DNA of 64,000 nucleotides, from the NCBI GenBank assembly GCA_036924285.1, contig JAYKYS010000009.1, forward strand, positions 13,950,001 through 14,014,000, in the 5' to 3' direction. The notes beneath the pieces are model-generated. The model was not told the origin of the DNA, ran no database searches, and was given only the letters and a program-made list of their open reading frames with translations. The DNA comes from Asterella californica. Taxonomy: Eukaryota; Streptophyta; Marchantiopsida; Marchantiales; Aytoniaceae. The number at the start of each line of letters is the position of its first letter. The stretch's first letter is position 1. Of this stretch, positions 6,401 to 57,487 are shown piece by piece. Position numbers and translations under genes: made by a program.

Positions 6401-9400
6401 AGCTATGATGATGGCAGGGACGTATCGCCCCACATTTTCGCAAGACTGCTTGACAGCATTGAACAAATCCTGACGTTAAACTGGAACATAAAACCCTCTT
6501 CACTAGGACAGCTACCTCCGACTACAATTTCAACTTGGACGGGACATTCCATTAATTCCCTCATCGAATATTTCGGTATATGAACGTGATCAGAATCAGC
6601 GACTATCCTACTAGTAGGGAATCCTACTAAACTTACAATTGCTAATTTCCTCTGAATCCGCCTTGCCATGTTTAGCTTAGCATTTCTTCGTGCATTCTCC
6701 CTGTTTAAGCGTTCTTCTTCACTGTTCTTCTGGACCTCCCAATTAGCTTTGGCTTCCAGTGTTTCAGCGAGCGTTCCAGCAACAGCAGCCGTCACTTCTT
6801 TGGAATTGTCTGGAACTGTAGTGCTTCTAGGCAATAAACGCACTTTTTCTTCCTCTTCCTGTAGCGCATGAGTCATGGCCTGTCGTTCTGCAAGAGCTGC
6901 AGCTACGGATGGTGGAAGAAAATCTTTGCCCCGATACAACACGATGAAGTATTTGTCCCGAGCAAGGAGGACACCACCAGTGAGACGCTGCCAATCGAAA
7001 TGACCACCACTGCTTAGAGGACCCATGCAAGGTATCATCCACTAGAAACCTCGAAATGTACGACCAAGACAAAGGAGGGCAGTGCTAAAAGTTCTTCATT
7101 CCTCGCTCCATGACACCGTTGGTCAGAACGAGCTATCCAAAATTGAGGACTGTCTATGCAACCACAAAGACAAGAGAGCAGACCGTAACACGCTAACGGA
7201 GGGTGAGAGCAAACCTTGAGCTCCTCTCCCATCCTTTCATGGTTCGTGTTCTGGACTCCACGCTTAACGGCAACTTTCGCAATCTCGCTTCTCTCCCAAA
7301 GTTTAACGATCGCAGCTGCCAGTCCGTCTAAACCCTTATTCCTGCCTGCCAACATTTCCACCAGTGCGGATGTGAAAGCTTGAAAGCCACGGCGGTAAAA
7401 TAGCTCAAAACCAAAACAAAGTTCCAAGTGCAAAACCTTGAACCAGTAAAGGGTAGAAAGAAAGAAAACTAGAGAAACATTACATGAGCAGAACACTTGC
7501 ACAACGTGCAGGTTAAGAAAATCAAGGCAAAGTGGAAAGCGCGCAGATTTCCCTCTAGTGTAAAACAGGAACCTAGCTGAAACCTAGAAAAAGACCTCGA
7601 ATCTGGAGCTTTAAATACTAACAGAACCGAAAGGAGCCGCGATGTAAATGAATGAGTTTCCACCTGGAATTTTTCTCAAATAGTAGCTGAGAGCAAAGTT
7701 CTAATTTGCTCTATGCCGCTTCCAGCAGACTTGTACCAGGTGATTAAGACGAAGTATCACTTACCAAGAACAAAATGAGGGGGGATTGGTCGTGCGAGTT
7801 TCCGCAGCTCCGTCATCTCCTTGTTAGAAAGACTAGGTTTTACGCCATAAGGTAGTAGCCTGTATGGCTTCTTGAATGTGAACTCGTTGTCAATCAACTG
7901 ATCGGCATCAACAGGTACCGGCTTTCCCCCCGTCCAATCCTCATAACGAGGGCCCAGTGCTGCGAGTATTTCCTCCACCTCTTTTTCCATCTCAGGATCA
8001 TAGACACTCGAGACCTTAGGCACTACTACAACGGTCTCAGTAACCTTTTCATCGCCTCCTTCTTCACTTTCACTTCCATCAACGGCACCATCAACAGTTT
8101 CAACCTCTTCCGTGAACTCGCTCCCTTCGACTGATTCCGTACCTAACAGTCCTCTCAGAGGTGGGGGTACGTAATCCTTTCCACGATACACTAAACAGGC
8201 ACCGCCAGCTCTCCATATCACCAACCCACCAGTTCTTCCCTGATTTCAGAATGTTCAAGACATGGTAAGTGCTCGTAAACCGCACACACTACCTGTAGGA
8301 CACAGTTTCTAGCTTCTGAACTTAAACATGACGACGGTATGCGTAAGGCTTACTTTCCAAGCCATAAAAGTAGAGTTCAGCACCATACACGGCGCATTTA
8401 TCTACTGAGCAAGAAAAAGCTCTAACCTCAAGCTCTTGATGAGTTCTCTTCATATTCATCGCTGGTGGGCCTTCACACTTCACCCTGACAATCTCGTTAT
8501 CTCGCCATTCATTATGAATCGATTCCACGATACCGTTAGTCACACCTGCCTTGCCAAGTTTGATTCTATGTCTGGCAAGTATACCAAGACTCCTCAGTCT
8601 TTTCAGCTCATCCTCTGGAATGGTCAATTCAGCTAACGATGGTGGTTTCACTCTCTTTTGTTTCTCGGAGGACGCCCTTCCCATCTCCATTACTTCCTCT
8701 TCTCGTTCCCATGGGAATCTAGTGTCCGGACGGTTCTTTCTAGGCACTTCAGCTGGTATGGGAACCGGATGATCAGGAGTGCTCCAGCCCTTTTGTACCA
8801 TTGGGAACATTGGCTCCGCAGTCTTGGGTAGAAATATGTTAGACCCATCCAAAGAACGTCCCACTTTATTTCTTGGCTCGTATACCTTTCGAGATCCAGG
8901 AATACTGCTGAGCTTTTCCACAATGCGTGCCATAGCCGACTTTTCACCTCTACCAACAAAATGTGAAGTCTGAGCATCATCAGCCTCGAGGTTACCATCC
9001 ACATTATTGTCGGACTCATCTTTGACAGCTGGTAGACTTTGAAGACGCTCAATGAGGGGATTCCTTTTCGTAAAATTTCGCTCACCAAAGCTCCTGAGGA
9101 CAGGTTCCGAATCATTACCTTGTTCCCAAGGAGCTTTGTAAACAGCACGATCTGAAACAAACTGAGATGTCGACTCTCGCGGAGTGATTGTCTGAAACGA
9201 AGATGACTGACCCTTTCCTTTCCCAGCCTTACTTCTTTCTTCAAAACTTCCCCAGGGTTCCCTTGTCTCCCGGGGTCCATTTCTTGTGGCAAATCTTCCT
9301 CTACCTGCACTACCTGGTTGAATCTCTCTAGAATCACCCCTTTGTGGCAAGTTCACCCTAAAATTGCCATCCTGGCGGGCAAATTCCCCCCGAGAACCAT

Positions 9401-10259
9401 TTCTCCCGGCCGCATTTCCACGTCCTCTGCCCTCTTCTTGACGTACAAATCCTCTACCTTCGAAACCTCCACCATCACTTGCTCCAGGACCTGCTCCTCT
9501 CGTACTAAATCTACCTGCACTGTTTTCAGTGCCCCCACTTTTCCCCCTTGCGCCGCGCCCCCTACCGTAACTCCCTCTCGCATAGCTGTTTCCTACATTC
9601 TCCTCCCTTGAGTCACTTCGTGCTGGATAACCTGCCCTGCTGGAGCCATTCCTTCCGGCATATCCTCCGCTACTAGTGCTACTATTCCTACTCTCCCCTC
9701 CTGAACGACCCCTGCCGTCTCGATTCTCACCTCTGAACCTGGAATCTCCCCTCTCAGAGCCACTATCCGTTCTACTCGAAGCACGCTGAGAATCGTAAGA
9801 ACCATCTGTGCTACGGAAACTGGAGTGCGATCGGAACTCCCTCTCGGTTCCTGGTCCAGGCGAGGAAAATCCTGAACCTTCTCCTCTGCCCCTGCCCCTG
9901 CCCCTTCCTCTGCCTCTATCACTACCCCTACCACCTCTTTCACTCCAACTGGTCCTCCGTGCTCCTTGATGTGTGCGAGGTTCAGAACTGCCACTCCCTT
10001 CATTCTCCAGCTCCTGCACATCGAACACAGCCACCACCAGCTTTTGACGATCCCTCACTCGCTTCAAATACGAACTGCTTTTACAGTGAAGGAAACCGAA
10101 TTGCGGATCATTTCCAGTTCCAACATTAGCTGCCGAAGCTAATCTCTTGCTCCAACCTTCGTCCACAGGTCCGAGTCCACCTACGAGAGCAACACCTGTG
10201 ACCGCACGGAGGCGCGGCCCTGAAAACTGCAGGAGCGCCATAGCTCTCTGCTCTGTCAC
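3478..10259 (-). CDS. CFM2: CRM-domain chloroplast intron splicing factor, CFM2-like (10 exons)
   Basis: CRM proteins bind organellar introns and help them fold; CFM2 of seed plants acts on chloroplast introns. The coding exons, from 5' to 3', are 10259-8427, 8239-7765, 7345-7215, 6987-6637, 6313-6157, 5930-5638, 5327-5268, 4953-4698, 4421-4291 and 4041-3478. All junctions are GT-AG and the sum is 4251 nt, giving 1416 aa without a stop. Residues 1 to about 75 look like a transit peptide; MALLQFSG at residue 7 is an alternative start. Residues about 105-345 are rich in RG, S and G. Four CRM domains follow: about 547-635 ([16 protein letters not shown]), 752-845 ([14 protein letters not shown]), 968-1055 ([14 protein letters not shown]) and 1165-1245 ([17 protein letters not shown], ending in KIILYRGW). 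An acidic tail follows. Four rather than three CRM domains, plus the LTPELRDAM tail, point to CFM2 rather than CFM3 or CRS1. The family is certain and the subfamily likely. Confidence 0.9.
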
Positions 10260-11640
10260 TCGCTCGCGCTCAACGAGAGCAGCGCATGACTACGAGAGCG
10301 TACAATCCCCTTGCGGAACCCCAAACCCCCACTGCCTTCTCCCCAGAGAAGAGACCAGAATAGCGCCAATGCTAACCAGTTCGAATCATCGTCCGCCGTA
10401 ACGTCGGCCCTGTTTCTAAATGCGGTGTTCAAACCATTATCCGCTACGTGGATCCAACGAGTTCTCCTCTAAAGCAGTTCTCTGTTCTCTCTTGTCCAAG
10501 CTGGACTGACTCGATTTCCAAGTAGGATAACGTCGAACCTTATGTACAGTACACATTTATGCTCGGGCATGGATTTATTTATCGTCACGGTCTGTGGATA
10601 ATGCGCGCGGCGCACGATCACATTAGGATACGAGCCGATACCTGGTATCCCGGAATGAGTACTTCTTCTTTTCTTATTACGCGAAAGACTTTATATCAAA
10701 CGCACGCAAGGAGCGAACATTGACAAGTCTCACCCAGTTCTCGACCGGTAAATGCCGTAAATGCGGTATTCTTTGTATTCTCAACCTGCTGGAATTCTAA
10801 AAAGCCTGGTTAGAATGGTGGGCAACCGAAGCTTTTACCGGCGAAAATAACACATAACGACCAATTATCTGTTTATGGAAACTGATAGACGATCGGATCC
10901 AGTCCAGCTTCTGGCACCCATCACAAGCTGGGTCACCGGCGGACTTGACAGCTTCCCGCGGAATGAGTACTTACGTTATTCTACGTTTCGGGGGACTTGG
11001 TTTCTGGTGAAACGGCGATAACTGTATTCCGGGACGCAGCCCATGCTTCCGGCGTGCTTGTCTTTTTCTGACTGGACCTGCATCCTGGTCGCAGGTGCTT
11101 GTGCGTGAACGAACGCACATCTACCAATAACTCCAGCCCAGTGACTGTACCAGGTATTACGCCCCATCCACACCTGCTTGGTTTTTTCACTATCTGATAG
11201 GTCTTTACAGTTTTCGAGACGTGCCTAAGCTCAGAGAAAAATTCTTCTTCTTCAGTCCCCGAAACGAACAGTCGATCTCCCCGAGACCCCCGAAGTTGAA
11301 AATATCTCCGTCAACCTGCTGTCGTCCGTTTTCGCTCTCGATGTAAAGATTGTCACAAATCGCAGTTCTCAAAACCACCGCGGGTGTGGGTCATGCGATG
11401 GACACTATACGTTTTTGATAGTGTGTTGGGAGTCACGAAAGGTGAGTGCATCTTGGTCTTGGTCGCGACCAAGACCAGGGTTTACTTTGAAATTATTTCC
11501 ATGACCGTATCAGCCGTCAGCCACCCTTCGTCAGCTTGGTCAATGCTTCACAATTGTACTAAACTTTTTCACGTATCGACAATAAAAGTTCGTCAAACCA
11601 ACAAATGTTCAAACTCGACTCACATCTATGAGGTGTGAGA
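10260..11640. other. Upstream flank of the CFM2-like gene, no gene seen
   Basis: This region should contain the promoter and 5' UTR of the minus-strand CRM gene. The short frames near 10976-11190 overlap each other in two phases and have no family motif. A perfect 24-bp palindrome sits at 11454-11477. The retroelement remnant begins at about 11640. Confidence 0.5.
11454..11477. repeat. Perfect 24-bp palindrome
   Basis: The half-site TGGTCTTGGTCG is followed directly by its exact reverse complement. A second small inverted repeat (ACACTAT and ATAGTGT, 11402-11424) lies 30 bases to the left. The site is close to the border between the gene flank and the retroelement. No function can be assigned. 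Confidence 0.9.
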
Positions 11641-11664
11641 TACTGCAATAGCCTCAACCTTCAT

Positions 11665-12400
11665 CTATTGAACACTCAACCCACTTGGGTAGATGGTGTG
11701 GTCCAAATACTCTACCAACTCTTGGAAGAACTTACACTTCGTCGGGTGTAACTTCAACCCATGAGCTCTCAACCGCTCCAACACATCCCTTAAGTGTCTC
11801 TCGTGCTCCTCCATTATAGCATTATAGACTAAGTTGTCGTTAATATAACATCTGATCAAATCCAATCCTGCTAGGATCTTGTCCGTCATTCTTTGGAACT
11901 CAGCAGTGGCATTCTTCAACAATGTTATATTGCTGAAGAATCGTCACTGATATAAACAATCTTTGCCGTGAGAGTTAATTCCTCAGAATGTTTTCTTAGA
12001 CTTATCTTTTTCTCTCATCGGCAACTGATGATACCTTGCTCGAAGGTCCAAAGTACTGAAGACCTTCACATGCCCTACTGCATCAAAGATTTCCTCAGAT
12101 GTCAGCATGACATACTTATCGGACTTCGTCTATCGATTGATAAGACAGTAGTCTCCACACATCCGCCTATCCGTGTAGTTGCCATACATATCTTTCTTTG
12201 CTGGCATAACTATGACAGATGCTACTCTCCATGCGACATCTTCACCAACCGAGCCTCCAACGAGTCTTGAATCCTACTCTAGATCAAGACTCTCTTCATA
12301 TCATTATATTTGTAAGAACGTCAAAAGATTGACGTGTCATTAGTCAAGTCGATCCGTATACCTAGTCCTTTCAAGGTACCCAAATCCTTCATATTGAAGA
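11665..12400 (-). pseudogene. Ty3/gypsy reverse transcriptase fragment
   Basis: The region just before RT is recognisable at about 12400-12280 (ELTND-type stretch reading RIDLTNDTSI). RT blocks follow: RMCGDYCLINR (near 12165), then VKVFSTLDLRARYHQLPM (near 12050), then FQRMTDKILAGLD and the active-site block CYINDNLV (11880-11800), then LRAHGLKLHPTKCKFF (about 11770). The YIDD box reads YIND, and a stop and frame changes separate the pieces. The family assignment to Ty3/gypsy is firm; the copy cannot be active. Confidence 0.85.
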
Positions 12401-12776
12401 CAAAATAATTCTTGTAGCTCTTCAAGAATCTTTAAACTCTTCGTCTTCCTCTCCTATAAGCTTGGGTCCAATCTTCAGCTTCAAAGTATCCGCTGTCATC
12501 ACGCTAGAGGTAGAAGACGAAATCGTTAACTGCTATCTTGCAGCTTTTGGAGCAATGTCATTCCGCTCACTACCAACAACCTCCACCTCCATTGTCCAAA
12601 AAACTTCTGCAGTCCTAGCTGCAAGCTCCACACTCTCTTCTACGACATTCCATGTGATGTCCAAAGATGACGAACTCCACACGCCTCGCTTCCAACATTT
12701 ACCTCCATCGATCCGATAAGCAAAGAGCTCAGAAGTGTCTAAGTAGTAACACTCGTCGATCACATCCGACGCTGCT

Positions 12777-13690
12777 CAACAATCCATGTCAAGCAATTCA
12801 AGTCCATTGCTTGATCCAATACTTGACGACGTGAAGTCTCTGACATCGAAGCTACTGCCGTAGAGAACCAATCGCTCGTTCTCTCTCATCGGCATTGGAC
12901 TCCACCAACTGCTGTAACCGAACATCTCACACAAGCTTAGGTCCTCCATCTTTGTAATCATGTGACCCTAGAAAGCTCATCAAAGTGAGCAACGCTGCCA
13001 TGGATCATCTCACTAAGTTCACCACCACCATGAGTGATCTATCGACGACTCTCACTACTTGAGATCATCACTCTACATCCAAGATGCCATCAACTGTGAG
13101 GTGCGCTGATCGTCTCATTGCATCGTGTGTGCGCTTGAGCACCTCCTTCGGTAACAAATTCGTCCACCACTCTCGTGGACGATGTGCACGGGATCTTACG
13201 GCTCGCTGCATCCAATAACATTATCGGTCCAATCCAGGATTGCACTTGGTGCACACTCGTCATCATTTGTGTCATCCAAGATGTACGTTGGAGAATCCAC
13301 CTGATGTATCTAGAGATGTCATAAGATCCGTAACATCTCTCAAAACATACTAGATCGCGGGTAATGTAAAGCCTTGATCTCTACCAGCACGCGTGTGACC
13401 TTGACATGATCACTCGGCTATAACCACGTGAATGATGTCAACAATTGTGAGATCTTGCGCCCTCAGCAGCGAAATATCCGATGGTAATGCTTGCTGGTAT
13501 CCTCTGATAGCTGATATGGACAACAACTCAAGATATCTTTGCACCAAGCGTGCCACATGACGCAATGAGATGCGTCTCGTAATCTCATCTCTCTCCATAG
13601 ATTAGTATCGTTGTACTCGTATGCATGCATGCAATACCGCAACCAAACCTATGATGATCTCTCCAAACAGCTCCAACACACATACACCCT
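12777..13690 (-). pseudogene. Cytosine-5 DNA methyltransferase-like domain inside the Ty3/gypsy pol
   Basis: Active homologues transfer a methyl group from S-adenosylmethionine to DNA cytosine. Seen in order on the minus strand are five pieces. VLELFGE (13659-13679) is an SAM-binding motif I. After it comes ALPSDISLLRAQDLT and the string VVIAE, a stop, then SCQGHTRAG (SCQGH at 13395-13409). This matches the W-P-C-Q-G catalytic motif, with tryptophan TGG now TGA and proline now serine; the catalytic cysteine is kept. Then LLDAAS and, after a frameshift, SRAHRPREWWTNLLP (HRPREWWTN at 13158-13184), resembling the R-x-R-x-F-W-G-N block of DNMT3-type enzymes. The end (ENERLVLYG, then LELLDMDC, about 12880-12780) fits the C-terminal motifs. 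Several stops and at least one frameshift make this copy inactive. It lies upstream of RT, where the family normally has only a linker. The identification rests on motif order, not a search. Confidence 0.72.
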
Positions 13691-13944
13691 CCTCTGGATA
13701 CTACCATACAACGGTAGTGGTATCCAACGGTGATAAGGTCACAGATCTAGTAGTAAGAACAACCTTTTGTTTTTTTATTGACGATTCAAAGACTTCACTC
13801 CAAACCCGCTGTCGTGTCGTGGACCAGCTCCTACTTGAAAATCAAATTTTGATGTTTATCATTATCGCTCCAAAGACACTCATGGGACTAAAAATGAAGC
13901 TTTTTGAACAACTTTGGATCTTTACTTTCATCGCATCAATGGGT

Positions 13945-14215
13945 AGAGCTCATTGTCAGCTTTCCATGGGCACTTTGTTTACTTCATTTGGACGCCTAGT
14001 GGAGAAGTTACGAGACTCGAAAGATGAGAAAAGCAAGCTAGACCCCAGCTTATGGGCTTTTTGCACAACTTCAGATATTCACTTTCATCGCCATGAAAGT
14101 GAATATCTGAAGAGCTCTTTGTCAGCTTTCCATGGGCACTTCGTCTACTTCATTTGGACGTCTAGTGGAGAAGTTAAGAGACTTGAAAGAAGGAAAATCA
14201 AGCTAAGCCCTAGTT
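13945..14215. repeat. Two direct repeats of about 110 bp, 165 bp apart
   Basis: Both copies carry AGCTCATTGTCAGCTTTCC or the variant AGCTCTTTGTCAGC, then GGGCACTT, GTTTACTTCATTTGGACG or its variant, and TAGTGGAGAAGTTA. The spacer between them holds a perfect hairpin (14069-14112). One open frame (13621-14259) runs through, but its protein has no family motif and I do not call it a gene. Confidence 0.8.
14069..14112. repeat. Perfect 20-bp inverted repeat with 4-nt loop
   Basis: The left arm CTTCAGATATTCACTTTCAT (14069-14088) is exactly complementary to 14093-14112, with loop CGCC. It lies between two direct repeats of the nested insertion. It may be a junction formed by local inverted duplication. 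Confidence 0.9.
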
Positions 14216-15559
14216 TACTTTTGCTGACTGGGTACTTGCAGCTCCTAGCACTATACTAAGGACGCAAGGGGCATGCTAGCTCATAATATGAGAGAACTTG
14301 TACGTACTGCGACTGACGTAAGGGGGCAGCTTAAGGAGCTAACTTGCATCTACGACCTGTTAGCGGACGGTTCGGGAGATTTGGAGGTCCAATGCAAATG
14401 CGCAAGGCGTCGTTGGGTTCAGATATGTGCAAGCTATGCATTGGTTTAGACGGTTCGTGAAGAGACGGATCAAGGACTGTGTTCTAGGAGAAATTGAGAC
14501 GCATGAGAGGTTTTTGAGGACTTCATTGATCTGTGAAAGAGAGTTGGACCGTTCCGACCGTTCCAGAGTCTAAACTTGTTGTGCTTGAATCCATCGGGAT
14601 CATAACGCCGAGTTCTTCAGGAAATTGAAGACGATACGAAGTTTCATCGAACGATTTGGGAGTTCTGGGTGAAATTGACTCGCAAGGAAGTACTTATGTC
14701 AATCTTTCAACGCCTACGACTTGAGATTGCGTTGTTCTTCACGATCGGTGAGCCAAGCTCTCTATTCTTGATGCCTATGCGATCAGGAAGTCTTCACCTA
14801 CGCACATGAGAAGACCGTGTGTGGATTGGATTGTTCGGTTGGGTGTGGTGAACGAGTTTGAGCTACAGGAAGTCGATTTACGTCAGTTTTTGTAACTTGC
14901 GGTCAAATTTCTTGCGTGGTTTTGCAAGAAGAACTCCAAACGGCTTGTTTGGAGTCTCGTTGGGTTCAGGGTAGCTAGATCTACCTACCAGACGAATATC
15001 AGATCAAGTGATCCGTTTAGACGGTGTGTGCGGTTTTAAACCGCAGGGAGAAGTTTTGCAAGTTCGATCACCTGCGACCAAAAATCGACAATATCTTGGT
15101 TGTCAGGAGTCGGATCTGATAGTTTTTGAGACCAACAGAGTCAGGAAGGAAGGCCTTATCGACATCTGAAGTCCGTTTGGCGAAAGGAGAAAGTTCTCAG
15201 ATAGGTCTTTTTCGGTTCATTCGCTACGGATTTTGTCTTTTTGAGTTCGTTGGAGTTCTAGTTGGTTATGTACAGCTTGTGGTATCTAGTTTTAGCTAAG
15301 AGCTTGTACATGAACGTTGTTTGGACTTAGGTTTGAATCGTGTGATACTAGTGCAGCTCTTTTTGTTAGCAAAGAGATGTTTTTCTTACTTTGAGCTACG
15401 CTTTGATAGTTTTGGGTCTGGGTTGAGATTCAGGGACTTGTTTTAGGGGCTTTGGAAGCAGATTACAGACCGCTCTGGTCTGTTTCTTAGTTTTGTGTTC
15501 TTAGGGAGAAAGAACCGGCAATGTATGTACATTGGGAGCCTCTCACCTGACCGCCAACC

Positions 15560-15915
15560 TGGTCTTTAAGATGTTGTCTCCGTCCAATAGTCGATCACGA
15601 ACTCCATAGGGTATAACACAACACCTCCAACCAATACATCATAAGACTCCGCGGTCGTTACAATAGTCTTGGTCTTCATCATAGAGCTATCTGTGGAATG
15701 ATCTAGTCGAACTCTCACCGTCAACATCTCGCGTGTCATGTGTAGAACTGTACCCCCTAATCCTCCTAGAGATGTCTGTAGTTAGAATGGACATCTCTCC
15801 ACCTCGGACTTCCTCGTACCCAAACGATGCACGTCGCTTTCTCCGACATCAACGGTTGGGCTCCAGAGTCTAACAAGACTTTCTACGGTTGATACACCTT
15901 CCCTTAAGATGTCAC
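15560..15915 (-). pseudogene. Retropepsin (aspartic protease) fragment of the Ty3/gypsy element
   Basis: The aspartic protease motif appears as VLLDSGAQPLM (DSGAQ at 15856-15870). Downstream on the minus strand is SYDVLVGGVVLYPMEF, which fits the C-terminal flap region of Ty3 proteases, with DV-LG-type wording. Multiple stops separate the two. It is followed by the nested insertion, then by the methyltransferase domain. Confidence 0.65.
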
Positions 15916-16539
15916 CAAAGAGAAGATACCACTTCTGTTGTCCAACAACATCACACCTGGTGTCAAACCAGCACGGTCAATCGTCGACCTAGCTGGTAAC
16001 TCATCTAACATGGCAGTCGTCGCTTGTCAAATACCACTGGTAGCTGTCTTGATCCTCGACTCCATAGACACATCTACCGTCTCTCGGTGAACCACCTCAG
16101 CACTAGAGGTAACTACATCCTCGTGCTCACTGAGCGTGGCCGTCAACTGAAACATTGGAGCCAAGCTGACTCCCAATGCCCTCATATCCGTGGCTGAAAA
16201 GAGTGAGGTTCGGAGAATTGCTATAGCCGCCCCAACATCGGATTTGACATCGCATCCACAGACATCGAGGGTTGATTCGCATCACCTCCACTCATGGATG
16301 TCGATGCCTCCAACTCCACTGCATCATCTGTAGGTCATTTAAGAATCATAGACGTGGTCCTCAACGCCTCCGATAGCGTGAACGACTGAGGAAACTTGAC
16401 CTGTCTATCAGCCTTCTCGCATTGTGGACCCAACTTCACCAACGCACCTCATGACTCACAGACACGTACTGCACGCCGAGTCACTGCCGCAAATGTCTCG
16501 ATCTGTGCCACACCAGTCATGAAGTCGAAGTCAACTCCT

Positions 16540-17960
16540 TCTTCTTCATAAGACGTGGAAGTCTCTGTTTAGATCTCCGATGAGCCATAGTCATACTAGC
16601 TATCGTCTGCTCTAACTGCTCAATCCGAGCAGCCATACCCGCATTTGATGTCGTAGTAGATGGTGGACCGACTGATCTTCTCCTGGGTGCTGGACCTCTA
16701 CCTCCAGCTCGACCACCACGGTCTTCTGAGCTCTTCTGTCTTGTCCACGATCAGTCTTCTCTTGTCATAGCTTGGAGTGGAGATCAAAGCAACGGTCACA
16801 ACTGTGATCTGGTCGTTCGCAATGCTTGAGACGTCTCAAACATCTCATAACCACCTCTCCTCAGTGGACATTCCTTCTGCTATGAGGACCATCACACGTC
16901 CAGCTAGGACCCACTTGCTGTTGACTAGAGAAGGACGGCATCAGCTTCTGTCCACCATGTCCTCAAACACCTCCTTGAGATCGTGATTGTTCAACACGAT
17001 CCTTACCACCACCACCACCACCATGCTGTTGCGTAGCTTGTGATCCTCGATAAGAGGTGATCACCACACTCTCCTCCACCATGTTGAACTCAACTAGATC
17101 AAAGACAACAGTCAACATCGGAGTGGTGGCTCTAAGAAGAATCGCATCTCTAACTCTCCTACGCAGCTCTCTGTCCAGTATCCCAATACCAGAACTGGAC
17201 CGCATGTGCTTCCGCCACCCCTTGGGTAACGTTGATCAACAACCTCGTGGGAGTAAACGCCTCACGTAGACTCTCTCCAGTCTTCCGTTGGAACTCCTGT
17301 AGACTCTTCAACTTGTCGATCTGCACACCCTGATAGCCCTTCTTCAAACACTAGAAGAACTGAACCACAAGGTTAAACCTTGGTGGTATCCCGCTCATAA
17401 TACCACCTGCTCCACTACTAGTGGACACACAGTTGGTAGTAGGTACTCCATCACCCGTGGATGTATCATAGCTATTGGCATCCGAACTCGTAGGTGCACG
17501 TCTCTTGAAACTACGCCAGTAGTGATAGAAATGTAGTTGGGAGACCAATGTTGTCTCCATAACCCAATCTCCACGCTGTAGTCTCACCTGAACTCATGAT
17601 AATTGTCCATCGGTGGTCCCTCCAAATGTTAGAACAAACCCTTCCACGTCATGAAGGGTGTAAACAGTTGTGAGTTCGGCATTTGCTACACTTCGCACCA
17701 ACTGTCGAACTTATGGATGAAGTCATCCAGCTCAATAGTACTCACCGTACTCGAGTATCATCGAGGTCCTTTCGTGATCTCATAGATCTCTTCCCACAAC
17801 AACGGTGTGACGACACTAGGTGTATCTCCAACCACATCCTCGTCTGAATCGATGTCCTTTGCTGATGATACCGGTGCTATTGGTTGATACCTCACACCAC
17901 TCCATGTGAACCCGCTACTTATTACAGCTGAATCTCCGACAACCCTCGTGAACACTAAGC
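16540..17960 (-). pseudogene. Gag remnants of the Ty3/gypsy element
   Basis: Short in-frame segments on the minus strand fit a retroelement gag: an acidic N-terminal piece (DIDSDEDVVGDTPSVV, near 17850), MTWKGLF near 17645, a stretch ending in KLKSLQEFQRKTGESL (about 17310), and a coiled-coil-like RIEQLEQTIASMTMAHRRSK near 16620, preceded by an arginine- and glycine-rich patch. No zinc knuckle was found. The frames are broken by many stops. The position between leader and retropepsin supports the call. Confidence 0.5.
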
Positions 17961-37014: not shown

Positions 37015-37205
37015 TTATGTTGTCGTGTCATGGACAGACTCCTACGTGAAAATCAAAATTAGATGTTATGCATTATCGCTCCAAAGACGTTCATAGAACT
37101 AAAAATGAAATTTTTACATAACTTTTGAATCTCCACTTTCATTACATCAAGTGGTAGAGCTCATTGTTAGCTCCACGTGGGCACTTCATCTACCTCATTT
37201 GCATG
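37015..37205 (+). repeat. Dispersed repeat, copy of 13800-14000
   Basis: It shares GTCGTGTC-TGGAC, CTCCTAC-TGAAAATCAAA, CATTATCGCTCCAAAGAC, GGTAGAGCTCATTGT and GGGCACTT-ATCTAC wording, in the same orientation, with the nested insertion at 13800-14000. It marks another member of that non-coding element family. Confidence 0.75.
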
Positions 37206-37851
37206 CTTAATGATGACGTTAGTGTAATCAAACTCAATGATAATATCTCTCGAGCTCTATCCGACACTTATTATGACATCTAAACCTTGAGGAATGTTTC
37301 TAAGTCTAACTTTCTAGTCTTTTGAACCTCCACTCATGTTGTTTTGCCTTGTCAATCATTAAGTGGACAAAATACCTTTAAGGAAAATAATTCTACATCA
37401 CTTTTTTAACTCTTTCGAGCTTTATACTGGAAAGTCGTGTATTACACATGCTATACATGAAATAAAATCCACTCTAAAATTAAATGTCTAAGATAATATC
37501 CTCATGACCATCGTCTGTATTAATCACAACATGCATCTTAAAGTCACTATTGTAAGGATCTAACTCTACTTCACCAGGAGCATTCGTGGCCTCCACAGTG
37601 AATGATGCTTGCAACTCAACTTTCTTCACATCTGCGTCAACGGTCTCATAAGCTTCTTGATATAGAGCAAAGAGGGCACTCCAAGTGCTACATATACATG
37701 TTTGCAACGCATATATACTCAACTTTCGTTATCCCGTCTTCTTTCGAACTTCCAAACGTCTCTTCTTCCACCTCGGCACCCGAACTAGATTTCTCATGAA
37801 ATATTTTCAAGACCTCATTGTATGCTGAAACGTATATTTCTTAGTCGGTAA

Positions 37852-42502: not shown

Positions 42503-42974
42503 TGAGATGTACATGCTCCTCTACCTCACATGCCAAAATGGTCTTCAAAGACACTATCTGACCTAGTTGAGCTCTCATGTCGAACACAACTTCTGCATTA
42601 GCCTTGTCGGCTACCTCTCTCTGCTGATCAGCTATGTCACGTCATTTTTCCAATTGCTAGTTCGGCCGAATGCGAAGTGACGCGTACCGTTAGTACCGGT
42701 AGAACCGTTAGTAGAGTTTCTTGCGTTGAGACCACCAAAGAGTATATTTCGAGTTGGAGCTTGTAGTCTCTCATCTTTTCTCGAGTTGAGCCTTCATGCT
42801 CCTAACTATGATAGATGCGCTTAGTGAGTATAACCTAGATTCTCTACAAACATAGAGTGGGCTTGATTTGTGAGTGATTTGTTGTCGTTTGCCAAGTGTT
42901 TATGCATGTGTTCTCAGATTACTCGAGAAAAGATGATTCATGAAATCTTGATTGAGAGAAACTAGGTCACAGAT

Positions 42975-44330
42975 TTTCTACCGGTGGTATCTTCGGGTGA
43001 TCCCAGATTGATGATAGCTTCAGTTTGTGGAGTGGGGGTGATTTTTTCTTCGTTTGGTGTATTTTTGAAGTGATTTGGTGGAGGTTTGGTCGCTGGTGAC
43101 AGTTCGTCATTTTTTTGAAACTTGACATTCTGATGTGCGGAAGCGTTGGTCAGATTTTATGTGATGGTCGATTTTGATCCACAAAGAGTGCAGTAGAAGT
43201 GCGTTGAGAAGACGTTTTCAATGCAACCAAATTGTTCGAAACGAAGTCCGTTTGAGTTCCATAGAGCTCTTTTTGTGTTGCAGGGAACCAAAACTGAGAT
43301 TTACGTCAGATTTTTGGACGGAATTGACAAAATCTGTGGGTTTGTAGTGGGTCTTGTTGGTGGTTAAGGGTAGTGAAGTGTGCGGCTGGCCTTGTGTGGA
43401 TGTGTTCTCCTCTCAGAATTCTGTTGTTGGTATCCAAAAGGTGGCTTTGGTGATTTTACGTCAAGACTTTTGTCTTTTCGTGTGTGTTTTTGGGTGTCAT
43501 GTGGACAGATTTTGCATTTCGTCTACACACCAGCAGAGCAGAGAGTGTGCGAGTGTGTTTGCGATGGAGAGTGCATCTTAAGAGGTGTTTCGAGACTTCG
43601 AAGAGTAGAGGTGCGTGAGTGCGGAGGCATGGAGAAGCGGAGTGCGAGAGTTGCGGAGGCAGAGGTAGAACCAAAGCCGAGTCGAGCCGAGTCAGCTTGC
43701 TAGCGTGCGAGAGATAGGTAAGTTTTCAGTGGTGTTGGGAATGCGTAAACGTGATCATCCATCCAAACAGTATTCTAACTTAACTTCTCTGTTCCTAGTT
43801 TTAGATTATATCACTAGACCACTAGCTCTTGGTGTCTTACAATGACGCTCATAGGTACTTAAGGACTTGTCGTATGTCCTAGGAGGCCTTACAAAAATTA
43901 GGAAGAGAGTGGTAGTAAGATCTCATAGTCTTAGGGAGAAGCTACACTTGAGGTACCAGTTTTTCATGTTGTAGGTGGATGCATGGAGGGTGCTCGTGGT
44001 GTGAGCTAGTATAGCTACATGGTTGACGGTTTTTGTAGTTACTAGAGAATTGGACATCTAGTTAGCAACTCTAAACACATGTTATGATCGTTAGTGATAA
44101 TATATTGTGCATATCGTTATCTGATGAGAGAGACGTCAATCCGGGTGGGATTGAGTTTCTACTTTTGTGAATGTTTGAGGATGGAGGATTATCGTTTGGA
44201 CTTCTTGTGGTTGGAACCCCTCCATGCTCTGCTTCTTGTTTGTGCGTCGTATTTGCTTGTGTTGTCGAGTGATTCCGGAGTGATTACTCTAGTGTGCTGT
44301 CGGTAGCGAGATTGGAGTTGCGGACCAGTC
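42975..44330 (+). repeat. 5' region of the methyltransferase-bearing element (copy 2)
   Basis: This is a plus-strand relative of 18170-19450 (minus). The PBS-like CCGGTGGTATCTTCGG lies at 42981-42996, GAGGTGCGTGAGTGCGGAGG near 43610, and the YRLDFLWLEP block near 44193-44222. It is not followed by a recognisable gag, so only a 5' fragment remains. Confidence 0.65.
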
Positions 44331-44554
44331 ATACTATCTATGTTTCTCTCACGATGTCGTGTTGTGACACGGCTTACATGTGAATTTAACATAAAACTTG
44401 TATTGTGTTTTTTTCTAGGTTTCACGAACCTTGTTCATGTAACTCATTTGTCAGCGTATTAGGTGTCACATCCATGGTTATCTAGGATGTCAGATTAGAC
44501 AATAATGAGAAGTGTCAACTCAGTGATCCGTGGACATCGCGTGAGTAGCACTCG

Positions 44555-55134: not shown

Positions 55135-57487
55135 GTGAATATGAAAATTTCAAGGTTTCTTGGAGCTGAAGAGAATCTTTTCTTTATACTCAAAGTGGAC
55201 TGCGAGCATAAAATAAATATTCTTTTTCGAGCTTTTACAGCCATACTTGGGGTTTAAGAATGCTGTGCCCAACCTACCAATCAAGGTGTGATCATGCAAA
55301 TTTCTGGCCAGACGAGGTGGTTTCGAGCTCACCTTCTCATCGATTCCGTTTTGCAGCTTGTTCCTACATTATTTACACGACGGTCTGCGTTTTGGTTTTC
55401 CCAACCTGTTCGACTTTTGCATAGTCTTCTTCTCTTTGACAGTTTTACCCCCCGCATGGGACAGCGGATTACATCGAATTCCTAACTTGTTCTACACATA
55501 TAGTGGTTGGTCTCTTTCTCGATACTCAAAATCGTCAGGGCAGGGCAGGGCAGGAATAGAAGCATGGGACTGTAGGTTGACGGATATACCTCATTTCAGG
55601 ACGTTCTCCCGCTAGAATTGAACATTTTCTCTCGAGATAGGAGGGTCGAGAGAGGAGCGAGTTCATGTGCCTTACGATTTCCTCCGACACAGCGACACGT
55701 TGCCTGCCGCAAAGCCCTGAACAGTATCTGTGCAGGGGATTCCAAACAATGACCGAGCTGCAGCAGTCGTGCAGGTCGCTTGTAATGTGGAGCTGCAAAA
55801 TTTAGCAGTCAACTTCTGCATGTGCGACCCGGCCTCTGAGTGAGACTCCGCGTATCATGCGGCCCTAATGACGTGTGAGCGAGTAAAACTCAGCTGTCTC
55901 ACGAGTTCTCCCGTCCTTCTTAGCTTTGCTGATCGGCAACTGAACAAAACGATACAGGCCATGACGTATAAACAAAGTCACACACGACGGCTTGCTGAAT
56001 CCGGATAAGATGATAGTACCTGCAATTCGTGATTAGGGTCTTCTAGACTTGCGTGAAACGAAGTAGTCTTGCTCACTTTCTGCAAGGGTCTATCTAGAGC
56101 ACGAGCTTTCGTCGTCTCACAAGGAATCGAAACTCATGTTAGAAAACTTCCTCAACGCGCTTCGCGAATGGCGGATTCAGGTGCGCTAACGGACGAGACG
56201 CAGCTGAGATTGGAGAGTTTTGACACTCCAGAAGTCTAATCTGCATTTGAACAGACTCGTATAATAGGCTCAAGGTGCGAGTCCATGGGGCTCTCCATTG
56301 TTTCCATTGGTCTTAATAGGAAACCTGGATATCTTTCGTGCTCTGCTGTTTGACCGAAAAATAAAACGTCACTTCGAAAGAGCGACCTGCTCAGAGTTTA
56401 GGGTTCGCAGATAGTGTAATCAGGGTGAACTTAAGTAGATGAGACACGATAGCGATTACTTCTCTCGCCAGGAGTTGTTCTGAGGCTTGACAATGACCGC
56501 ACTGCGCACCTAACCTCATACCTGGGGATGGTAGCACTGAGTAGCGCAGCACTTTGTAACAGCCTCACGAGAAGTCGACATCGTGTACTTACTCATGTTG
56601 GAGCTCCCGAGGAAAAGCTCCTTGGTGCGTGTGAACGCCCCCATAATTGACTGAGTTACCGGAAGCGGCTTCATGTACAGCATCCAGTAACAGCATCCAG
56701 TAACAACCAGCAATTGACGCGTCTCGGTTTCACCTCGCTAACTGTGTCATTGCCCCAAGCGCAAAGATAATGTGATGGACACTACTCTGGAACTAAGTTG
56801 ATAACACCTGTTGCTGCTTACGCTCCACTTACTTCTTCCCCACGGTCTTCCCATCCGTTTGGTACTCATTGCGTCGCGCTTTTCTTCCGCTCCACTTACT
56901 TCGAAACCTTGCATGTGGTTAGAATCCAAAGTACAGACGACATGTCTCAAAGCACGCACATTTTCTTGCATAGAAGCAACCAGATACGCGATAGCAGGCT
57001 CCGCTTTCGTACTAGACTGTGATCTTCGATGAAGGCTTTATTGCAGTAAAGAGCACTGCTGGTATGAATTTACAGGATTTCATCCGAATAAATGTCTTCC
57101 GGGGAGAAGATGGTCGGGTCTCCCAAATGCAACGACTGAGTTTGAGAAGTAAAATCTGAACCGTTCAGAAACAAACAGCTACCACTAGCCATATTCGACT
57201 CAGCTTCCAGTTGTTAACACACGACTGCAACGTCTCTCAAGCTCCGTACATATAACCAGACCTCAGAAACTTAAAAGGCTTCAACAATTCATCCCCGACA
57301 GATTTGTTCCTGTGTCTTTCTCAACAGCCACAGGACAAACCATTTATAACCCTCACGTAAGTACAAGAATTACAAGATACCACGAGTACCATATGGCCAA
57401 TCCTTGATGTGATGTTTAGAACTCTGATTACAACCTTAAACTCTAAAGGCTCTGTTCACTTGGGAGGATCTTTGCCCGTTGATGTAT

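What the first reader, a model, noticed from the sequence alone, without database searches (positions are those of the whole stretch)
12777..13690. Retrotransposon carrying a captured cytosine DNA methyltransferase domain
Between retropepsin and reverse transcriptase of a Ty3/gypsy relic, the minus strand reads in order a motif I-like LELFG, a catalytic-type SCQG, HRPREWWTNLLP, and a C-terminal ENERL / LELLDMDC block. This is the order of a cytosine-5 methyltransferase. Capture of such enzymes by retrotransposons is, as far as I recall, known from dinoflagellates and charophyte algae. An element that could methylate DNA, perhaps its own copies, in a land plant would be notable. This copy is dead, but intact relatives may exist elsewhere in the genome.
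Basis: partly seen in the sequence, partly recalled or inferred. Interest (0 to 1): 0.88.

Follow-up and report, generated by a model that had tools for sequence, protein, structure and literature searches.

The report
Land-plant jumping gene carrying DNA methyltransferase
This window holds a dead copy of a jumping gene that carries a predicted DNMT3-type DNA-methylating enzyme, and the same genome, most likely a moss or liverwort, holds hundreds of related copies, 17 of 30 sampled with that reading frame intact, so the element likely methylates DNA itself, perhaps its own new copies.

Summary

The same 517-Mb genome holds 798 matches to the junction after the MTase. Of 30 copies taken from the best-scoring 111, all keep the catalytic residues, 17 have an intact ORF1, and MTase pN/pS is 0.17 (gag 0.20, protease region 0.23).

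Anatomy: gag-protease-MTase, an in-frame UAG in a CARYYA (leaky) context, then RT-RNase H-integrase-PHD finger. Terminal repeats are split (A1...B1-A2-B2), yet 10 of 10 copies read have 4-bp target-site duplications.

Relatives occur in liverworts and Sphagnum. The closest published case is Klebsormidium KnitGypsy-Dnmt3 (PMC5890265); seven searches of one open-access library found no land-plant report.

Most likely mechanism, inferred and untested: the MTase is made at Gag level, packaged, and methylates new cDNA. New variant of a known kind.

The parts
16233..17790 (-). gag remnant (broken in several frames)
   Evidence: tblastn of P0073/P0074/P0088
17791..18935 (-). remnant of the element's 5' leader; the match to the element ends here, so the relic is 5'-truncated
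   Evidence: blastn of the 5' piece of an intact copy, 18935-15542 at 80%
15476..16227 (-). retropepsin remnant (VLLDSGAQP)
   Evidence: tblastn; DNA match to intact copy runs to 15542; no Pfam hit for the relic piece itself, relatives hit Asp_protease_2
13812..15541 (.). unrelated insert of about 1.7 kb in place of about 270 bp of the element; contains a tandem pair (13899-14052 / 14056-14217)
   Evidence: gap between the two DNA matches; self-comparison
12778..13811 (-). DNMT3-type cytosine-5 methyltransferase domain, decayed (9 in-frame stops against the intact frame in the core, plus indels)
   Evidence: tblastn E 2e-84; 1061 of 1233 aligned bases equal to an intact copy over 13811-12533
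12533..12535 (-). UAG stop between ORF1 (gag-PR-MTase) and ORF2, followed by CAGTTA (fits CARYYA)
   Evidence: the UAG is shared with the intact copies, where the next six bases are CAGTCA
11644..12428 (-). ORF2 linker and reverse transcriptase remnant
   Evidence: tblastn of P0078/P0086; RVT_1 7.6e-12 for 11665-11943
11525..11641 (-). stretch between RT and RNase H; the match to the element ends here (3' truncation: no integrase, PHD or 3' repeats found)
   Evidence: tblastn to 11546, blastn to 11525
42635..42888 (+). second, fragmentary copy: part of the A terminal repeat
   Evidence: blastn 68%, E 4e-13
43532..44356 (+). second, fragmentary copy: part of the 5' leader
   Evidence: blastn 71%, E 2e-112

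Best explanation
The window holds a dead copy of a high-copy Ty3/gypsy-type retrotransposon family whose Gag-protease reading frame ends in a DNMT3-type cytosine methyltransferase, and the enzyme likely methylates the element's own newly made cDNA in or on the particle before integration. Shown: the domain, its place, its conservation in well-preserved copies, the UAG between ORF1 and ORF2, the split repeats, the target-site duplications and the PHD finger after the integrase. Inferred: the UAG would be read through at a fraction of passes, so the MTase would be made in Gag-like amounts and RT-RNase H-integrase in smaller amounts; the protease would release the MTase inside the particle; methylated cDNA would arrive looking like silent host chromatin (or be shielded from attack on foreign DNA), which would limit harm to the host; and the PHD finger would help choose the insertion site by reading histone H3 tails. 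The window's copy itself is broken in gag, protease, MTase and RT and truncated at both ends, so it does nothing now.
Against: No activity, expression, methylation or particle data here. In PMC5890265 the Klebsormidium gypsy DNMT3 showed no activity in yeast (judged inconclusive by the authors, since human DNMT3B failed too). The stop is not universal: predicted proteins that run from MTase into RT include P0073, P0078, P0079, P0086 (Marchantia), P0088 (Sphagnum), P0038 (Riccia) and unnamed P0101, P0102, P0107, P0108, P0120; gene models may bridge a stop by an intron, but this was not checked. RNA folds around the stop are unremarkable (z -0.87 after it in the intact copy, 0.17 in the relic; -1.99 before it). 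Excess C>T at CG and CHG sites fits host silencing equally well. Purifying selection shows use, not substrate.
Confidence: 0.55

Rival explanations
1. The MTase is real and selected but acts on host chromatin or on RNA, not on the element's cDNA: for example it would disturb or mimic host silencing in trans, or mark packaged RNA.
For: PMC5890265 raises RNA methylation and effects on the host methylome for other elements (section 11).
Against: Its place behind Gag and protease in one frame suggests a particle protein; no nuclear-targeting signal was looked for.
Confidence: 0.25
2. The MTase serves a truce between host and element: self-methylation would slow transposition, so the domain would be kept because restrained copies survive.
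For: Suggested in PMC5890265; consistent with many well-preserved but C>T-marked copies.
Against: Repeats are nearly identical in the ten sampled copies, so restraint is at best weak; not separable from the best explanation by sequence.
Confidence: 0.15
3. The MTase is a passenger: a chance fusion or host gene fragment with no role.
For: The window copy is dead.
Against: Same place in relatives from liverworts and Sphagnum; pN/pS 0.17; catalytic residues in 30 of 30 sampled copies.
Confidence: 0.03
4. The UAG is a true stop and ORF2 is made another way (reinitiation, splicing), so Gag-level expression of the MTase would hold but readthrough would not.
For: Relatives whose predicted proteins join MTase and RT; no special RNA fold.
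Against: Same frame on both sides, UAG-CARYYA context in young copies and relic, 99 of the 100 listed junctions keep a stop.
Confidence: 0.2

Closest known systems
KnitGypsy-Dnmt3 of the charophyte Klebsormidium nitens (PMC5890265)
   Same: Gypsy-type domains, intronless DNMT3-type MTase, purifying selection, and repeats whose structure is said there to be the same as that of a DIRS retrotransposon (section 9 read whole).
   Different: Host is a land plant by its nearest relatives; MTase lies at the end of the Gag-protease frame before a UAG, whereas theirs is described as in the Pol polyprotein ORF; PHD finger after the integrase (they mention none in the sections read). No protein named as Klebsormidium appeared in my three protein searches, so common descent is untested.
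SymbioDIRS-Dnmt3 of Symbiodinium (PMC5890265)
   Same: Retrotransposon-borne DNMT3; two copies shown there to methylate CG in yeast.
   Different: Those use a tyrosine recombinase; this element has a DDE integrase and 4-bp target duplications.
PAT/DIRS-type split direct repeats (layout recalled; papers seen as a listing only)
   Same: A1 ... B1-A2-B2 repeat layout.
   Different: Tyrosine-recombinase elements lack target duplications (recalled); here 10 of 10 have 4 bp and the ends are TG...CA.
Tf1/sushi-type self-primed gypsy elements (recalled)
   Same: 11 bases directly after A1 are the reverse complement of an 11-base stretch inside A (position 140), as in self-priming.
   Different: Only a sequence resemblance; priming untested.
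Chromodomain gypsy elements (chromoviruses; recalled; PMC2864245 seen in the listing)
   Same: A histone-reader-type domain after the integrase.
   Different: Here a PHD finger (6.7e-11) resembling those of CHD4, KDM5 and DPF proteins.

Membership tests
DNMT3-type cytosine-5 methyltransferase | Match to PF00145 above the curated cut-off | tested here: met
   Own-genome ORF1 35 bits vs 22; 7 of 10 short relatives and 9 of 13 long ones. Not met by P0016, P0038, P0072, P0073, P0088, P0107, P0108 nor by the relic's own pieces.
DNMT3-type cytosine-5 methyltransferase | Motifs I, IV (PCQ), VI (ENV), VIII (HRPR) in unpermuted order | tested here: met
   Order in ORF1 at residues 912, 1000, 1045, 1083; residues kept in 30 of 30 sampled copies. 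Motif numbering recalled.
DNMT3-type cytosine-5 methyltransferase | Closer to DNMT3 than to other C5 MTases | tested here: met
DNMT3-type cytosine-5 methyltransferase | Methylates cytosine in DNA | not testable with these tools
   No assay.
Ty3/gypsy retrotransposon | RT - RNase H - integrase (DDE) order | tested here: met
   RVT_1, RNase H, H2C2 and rve in order in ORF2 of one copy.
Ty3/gypsy retrotransposon | Two whole identical LTRs forming both ends | tested here: not met
   5' end is A1 (294 bp); 3' end is B1-GC-A2-B2; B found only in the 3' piece of the copy searched. Hence 'Ty3/gypsy-type pol with split repeats', not a canonical member.
Ty3/gypsy retrotransposon | RT branches inside Ty3/gypsy | not tested
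   No RT tree built.
DIRS/PAT tyrosine-recombinase elements | Split direct repeats | tested here: met
   A1 ... B1-A2-B2; B1/B2 0-1 mismatches in 10 copies.
DIRS/PAT tyrosine-recombinase elements | Tyrosine recombinase, no target duplication | tested here: not met
   DDE integrase, 4-bp duplication in 10 of 10.
KnitGypsy-Dnmt3 family | Sequence kinship with the Klebsormidium elements | not tested
   No protein named as Klebsormidium found.
UAG-CARYYA readthrough (type I) | UAG followed by CARYYA | tested here: met
   TAG CAGTCA in 12 of 12 copies, TAG CAGTTA in the relic.
UAG-CARYYA readthrough (type I) | Measured readthrough | not testable with these tools
   Needs a reporter assay.

The most novel reading that the evidence does not exclude
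Land plants host a highly successful retrotransposon lineage that carries both an epigenetic writer (DNMT3) and a reader (PHD finger): it makes the MTase at Gag level ahead of a leaky stop, methylates its own cDNA in the particle so that each insertion arrives pre-silenced, and replicates by a route that yields split terminal repeats yet inserts with a DDE integrase.
Probability: 0.3. Interest if true: 0.93.

Novelty: new variant of a known kind. Interest (0 to 1): 0.8.

Why it matters
DNA methylation is a main weapon of plants against transposons. A transposon family that keeps a de novo-type methyltransferase under purifying selection in a land-plant genome turns that around and makes a 2018 open question (what the DNMT is for) testable in bryophytes, where Marchantia, a genetic model, carries relatives. 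The split-repeat layout joined to a DDE integrase and 4-bp target duplications also points to a replication route that the textbook LTR scheme does not cover.

Tried and rejected
Rejected: (a) chance motif order, by tblastn E 2e-84; (b) host gene interrupted by the element, by the many copies with the same order; (c) bacterial-type or DRM-type MTase; (d) viral kin: one scan of viral contigs gave 2 loci of 28 matching stretches, at 31-34% identity, whose MTase frames look bacterial or phage-like; (e) an RNA fold that explains readthrough: none clear.

Led nowhere: the host DNMT3 search and the genome count of the split-repeat junction did not complete, so the origin of the captured domain relative to host DNMT3 is open. 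Paper searches: seven bore on a land-plant case and found none, showing 20 of 59 papers; three were on PHD fingers, split repeats and readthrough. Only a held open-access library was searched, no preprints or subscription papers. Read: PMC5890265 sections 9 and 11 whole plus passages; PMC12344493, PMC2754532 and PMC4132726 passages only; all others, listing only.

Limits: the 111 scored copies are the best-scoring of 4318 first-look candidates; my 30 came from them (10 plus-strand ones read at both ends, and 20 taken at steps through the rest), so '17 of 30 intact' and '30 of 30 catalytic residues' overstate the whole family. The junction pattern fixes its flanks and so favours preserved copies. 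The context count had no control family. Tree labels for MTase position (27 and 8 rows; 28 left unlabelled) were set by hand; only P0103 of the 8 shows both RNase H and integrase around the MTase, the other 7 are partial proteins showing one side; the tree warns of long branches meeting.

Full report
The observation. Raw translation of the minus strand shows LELFG, SCQGHTRAGR and SRAHRPREWWTNLLP in order in one frame, with further pieces (HYPRSSMF, PTYILDD, SVHQVQSWIGPIMLLDAA, ADERERAIG, SRRQVLDQAMDLNCLTWIV), several in other frames. Stop-masked pieces of the relic give no PF00145 match and the protease piece no Pfam match, while an RT piece matches RVT_1 at 7.6e-12.

Relatives settle it. The stop-masked composite found 72 proteins at E <= 0.001 among 931 candidates, the best 8e-107 at 60% identity with PF00145; named ones are from Calypogeia fissa, Marchantia polymorpha, M. 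paleacea, Riccia sorocarpa (liverworts) and Sphagnum troendelagicum and S. jensenii. A search set for long proteins found 36, among them many Marchantia gene models and one of Sphagnum fallax. A search with a profile of divergent members listed 52 at E <= 1e-5, among them one from Cymbomonas tetramitiformis (a green alga, recalled); one is labelled as a bacterial bin, probably mis-binned (inference).

Mapping those proteins back and the DNA of an intact copy draws the relic: leader from 18935, gag 17790-16233, protease 16227-15476, an unrelated insert of about 1.7 kb, MTase 13811-12778, UAG at 12535-12533, RT 12428-11644, end at 11525. DNA identity to an intact copy is 80-86% by segment. In the MTase-to-stop part 1061 of 1233 aligned bases agree, with 9 in-frame stops in the MTase core, and 106 of the 172 differences are C>T or G>A, as expected for long-methylated dead DNA (inference).

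The genome. The window is G000:C765:13950001-14014000 of a 516,715,530-base assembly. A protein search gave 4318 first-look candidates, of which 111 were scored, all at 78-79% identity to P0001, many in open frames of about 1370 codons. The junction pattern GCTGCAAGANNNCAGTCAACG occurs 798 times (control 0); of the first 100 listed, 96 read TAG, 3 TAA, 1 AAG. Besides itself, the relic's scored matches in the genome are at 79-84% DNA identity.

Anatomy of young copies, from 10 copies read at both ends: A1 repeat of 294 bp, about 2 kb of leader, ORF1 of 1307 aa from its first ATG in the copy used as reference (two CCHC-like motifs by pattern; Pfam zinc knuckle only 0.65, no protease hit), UAG-CAG-TCA, ORF2 of 1041 aa in the same frame (complete in 8 of 10) with RVT_1, RNase H, H2C2, rve and a PHD finger at its very end, then B1 (107 bp)-GC-A2-B2. 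A2 meets B2 directly in 7 of 10, with 1 extra base in 2 and about 22 in 1. The reference copy is about 10.0 kb. Ends are TGTC...GACA with a 4-bp target duplication in 10 of 10. A1 and A2 differ at 7 of 2930 sites. The 11 bases after A1 are the reverse complement of a stretch at A position 140, as in self-primed elements (recalled).

Selection. Of 30 copies, 17 have an uninterrupted ORF1. Pooled pN/pS among these: gag (codons 1-560) 0.200, protease region (561-790) 0.227, MTase core 0.173; counted once per site the ratios are 0.31, 0.37 and 0.22. Catalytic residues are unchanged in 30 of 30; the sample is from the best-scoring copies. The 76 codons between MTase and UAG behave otherwise: 2 synonymous and 11 nonsynonymous changes (core 39 and 26; Fisher p 0.005), which is unexplained.

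Breadth. Across the database proteins the MTase sits before RT (behind the protease where that is seen) or next to RNase H and/or before the integrase (8 proteins, one of which, P0103, shows both sides). On a tree of 63 rows, 27 and 8 of them labelled by position, each placement falls on one side of a branch (99/99), so the position changed, or the domain was taken up, few times (inference; long branches). The DNMT3A row covers 45% of the columns, so the root is not informative.

Mechanism. Shown by sequence: domain, order, stop, repeats, duplications, selection. Inferred: readthrough (context as in TMV, PMC2754532), Gag-level MTase, packaging, cDNA methylation before integration, PHD-guided targeting. 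Against a general readthrough rule, at least eleven predicted relatives run from MTase into RT without a stop (P0038, P0073, P0078, P0079, P0086, P0088, P0101, P0102, P0107, P0108, P0120). The cDNA idea was put forward for Symbiodinium elements in PMC5890265 (section 11), where two such enzymes methylated CG in yeast and the Klebsormidium one did not, inconclusively. C>T changes are commoner at CG and CHG (0.25 of sites each) than at CHH (0.16), which shows methylation of inserted copies at most, not who did it.

Comparison. The nearest published element is KnitGypsy-Dnmt3, whose repeats are likewise said to be DIRS-like (section 9). Against that description, new here are the land-plant hosts, the high copy number with recent activity, the MTase upstream of a UAG, the PHD finger, and 4-bp target duplications around split repeats. 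Whether the two descend from one element is untested. PMC12344493 (passages) repeats the streptophyte case without naming land-plant elements in the passages seen.

Noticed in passing
L011-L030 (own-genome copies): Split direct repeats A1 ... B1-GC-A2-B2 with TG...CA ends and 4-bp target duplications in 10 of 10 copies of an element with a DDE integrase; the A2/B2 join carries extra bases in 3 of 10. How reverse transcription makes this is unclear.
   Followed up: partly
L012:3248-3382: PHD finger at the very C-terminus of ORF2 after the integrase, most like CHD4/KDM5/DPF-type fingers.
   Followed up: partly
ORF1 codons 1231-1306 of own-genome copies: Synonymous changes depleted and nonsynonymous enriched just before the UAG; may hide an RNA element or overlapping signal.
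   Followed up: partly
P0103, P0125, P0126, P0128, P0130, P0133, P0136, P0138: Second placement of the MTase, next to RNase H and/or the integrase, in unnamed metagenome or genome proteins that group together.
   Followed up: partly
window 13812-15541 and 37021-37221: Unrelated insert within the relic with a tandem pair of about 155 bp and a 79% copy of one part at 37021-37221.
   Followed up: no
window 8322-10289 (-) and 7757-8245 (-): CRM-domain (CRS1/YhbY, 5e-12 and a weaker 2.4e-4) gene, chloroplast splicing-factor type (recalled), just downstream of the relic.
   Followed up: no
window 56627-56768 (-): U4 spliceosomal RNA match, 50.8 bits, E 2e-8.
   Followed up: no
window 42635-42888 and 43532-44356 (+): Fragment of a related element (A repeat and leader).
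   Followed up: no
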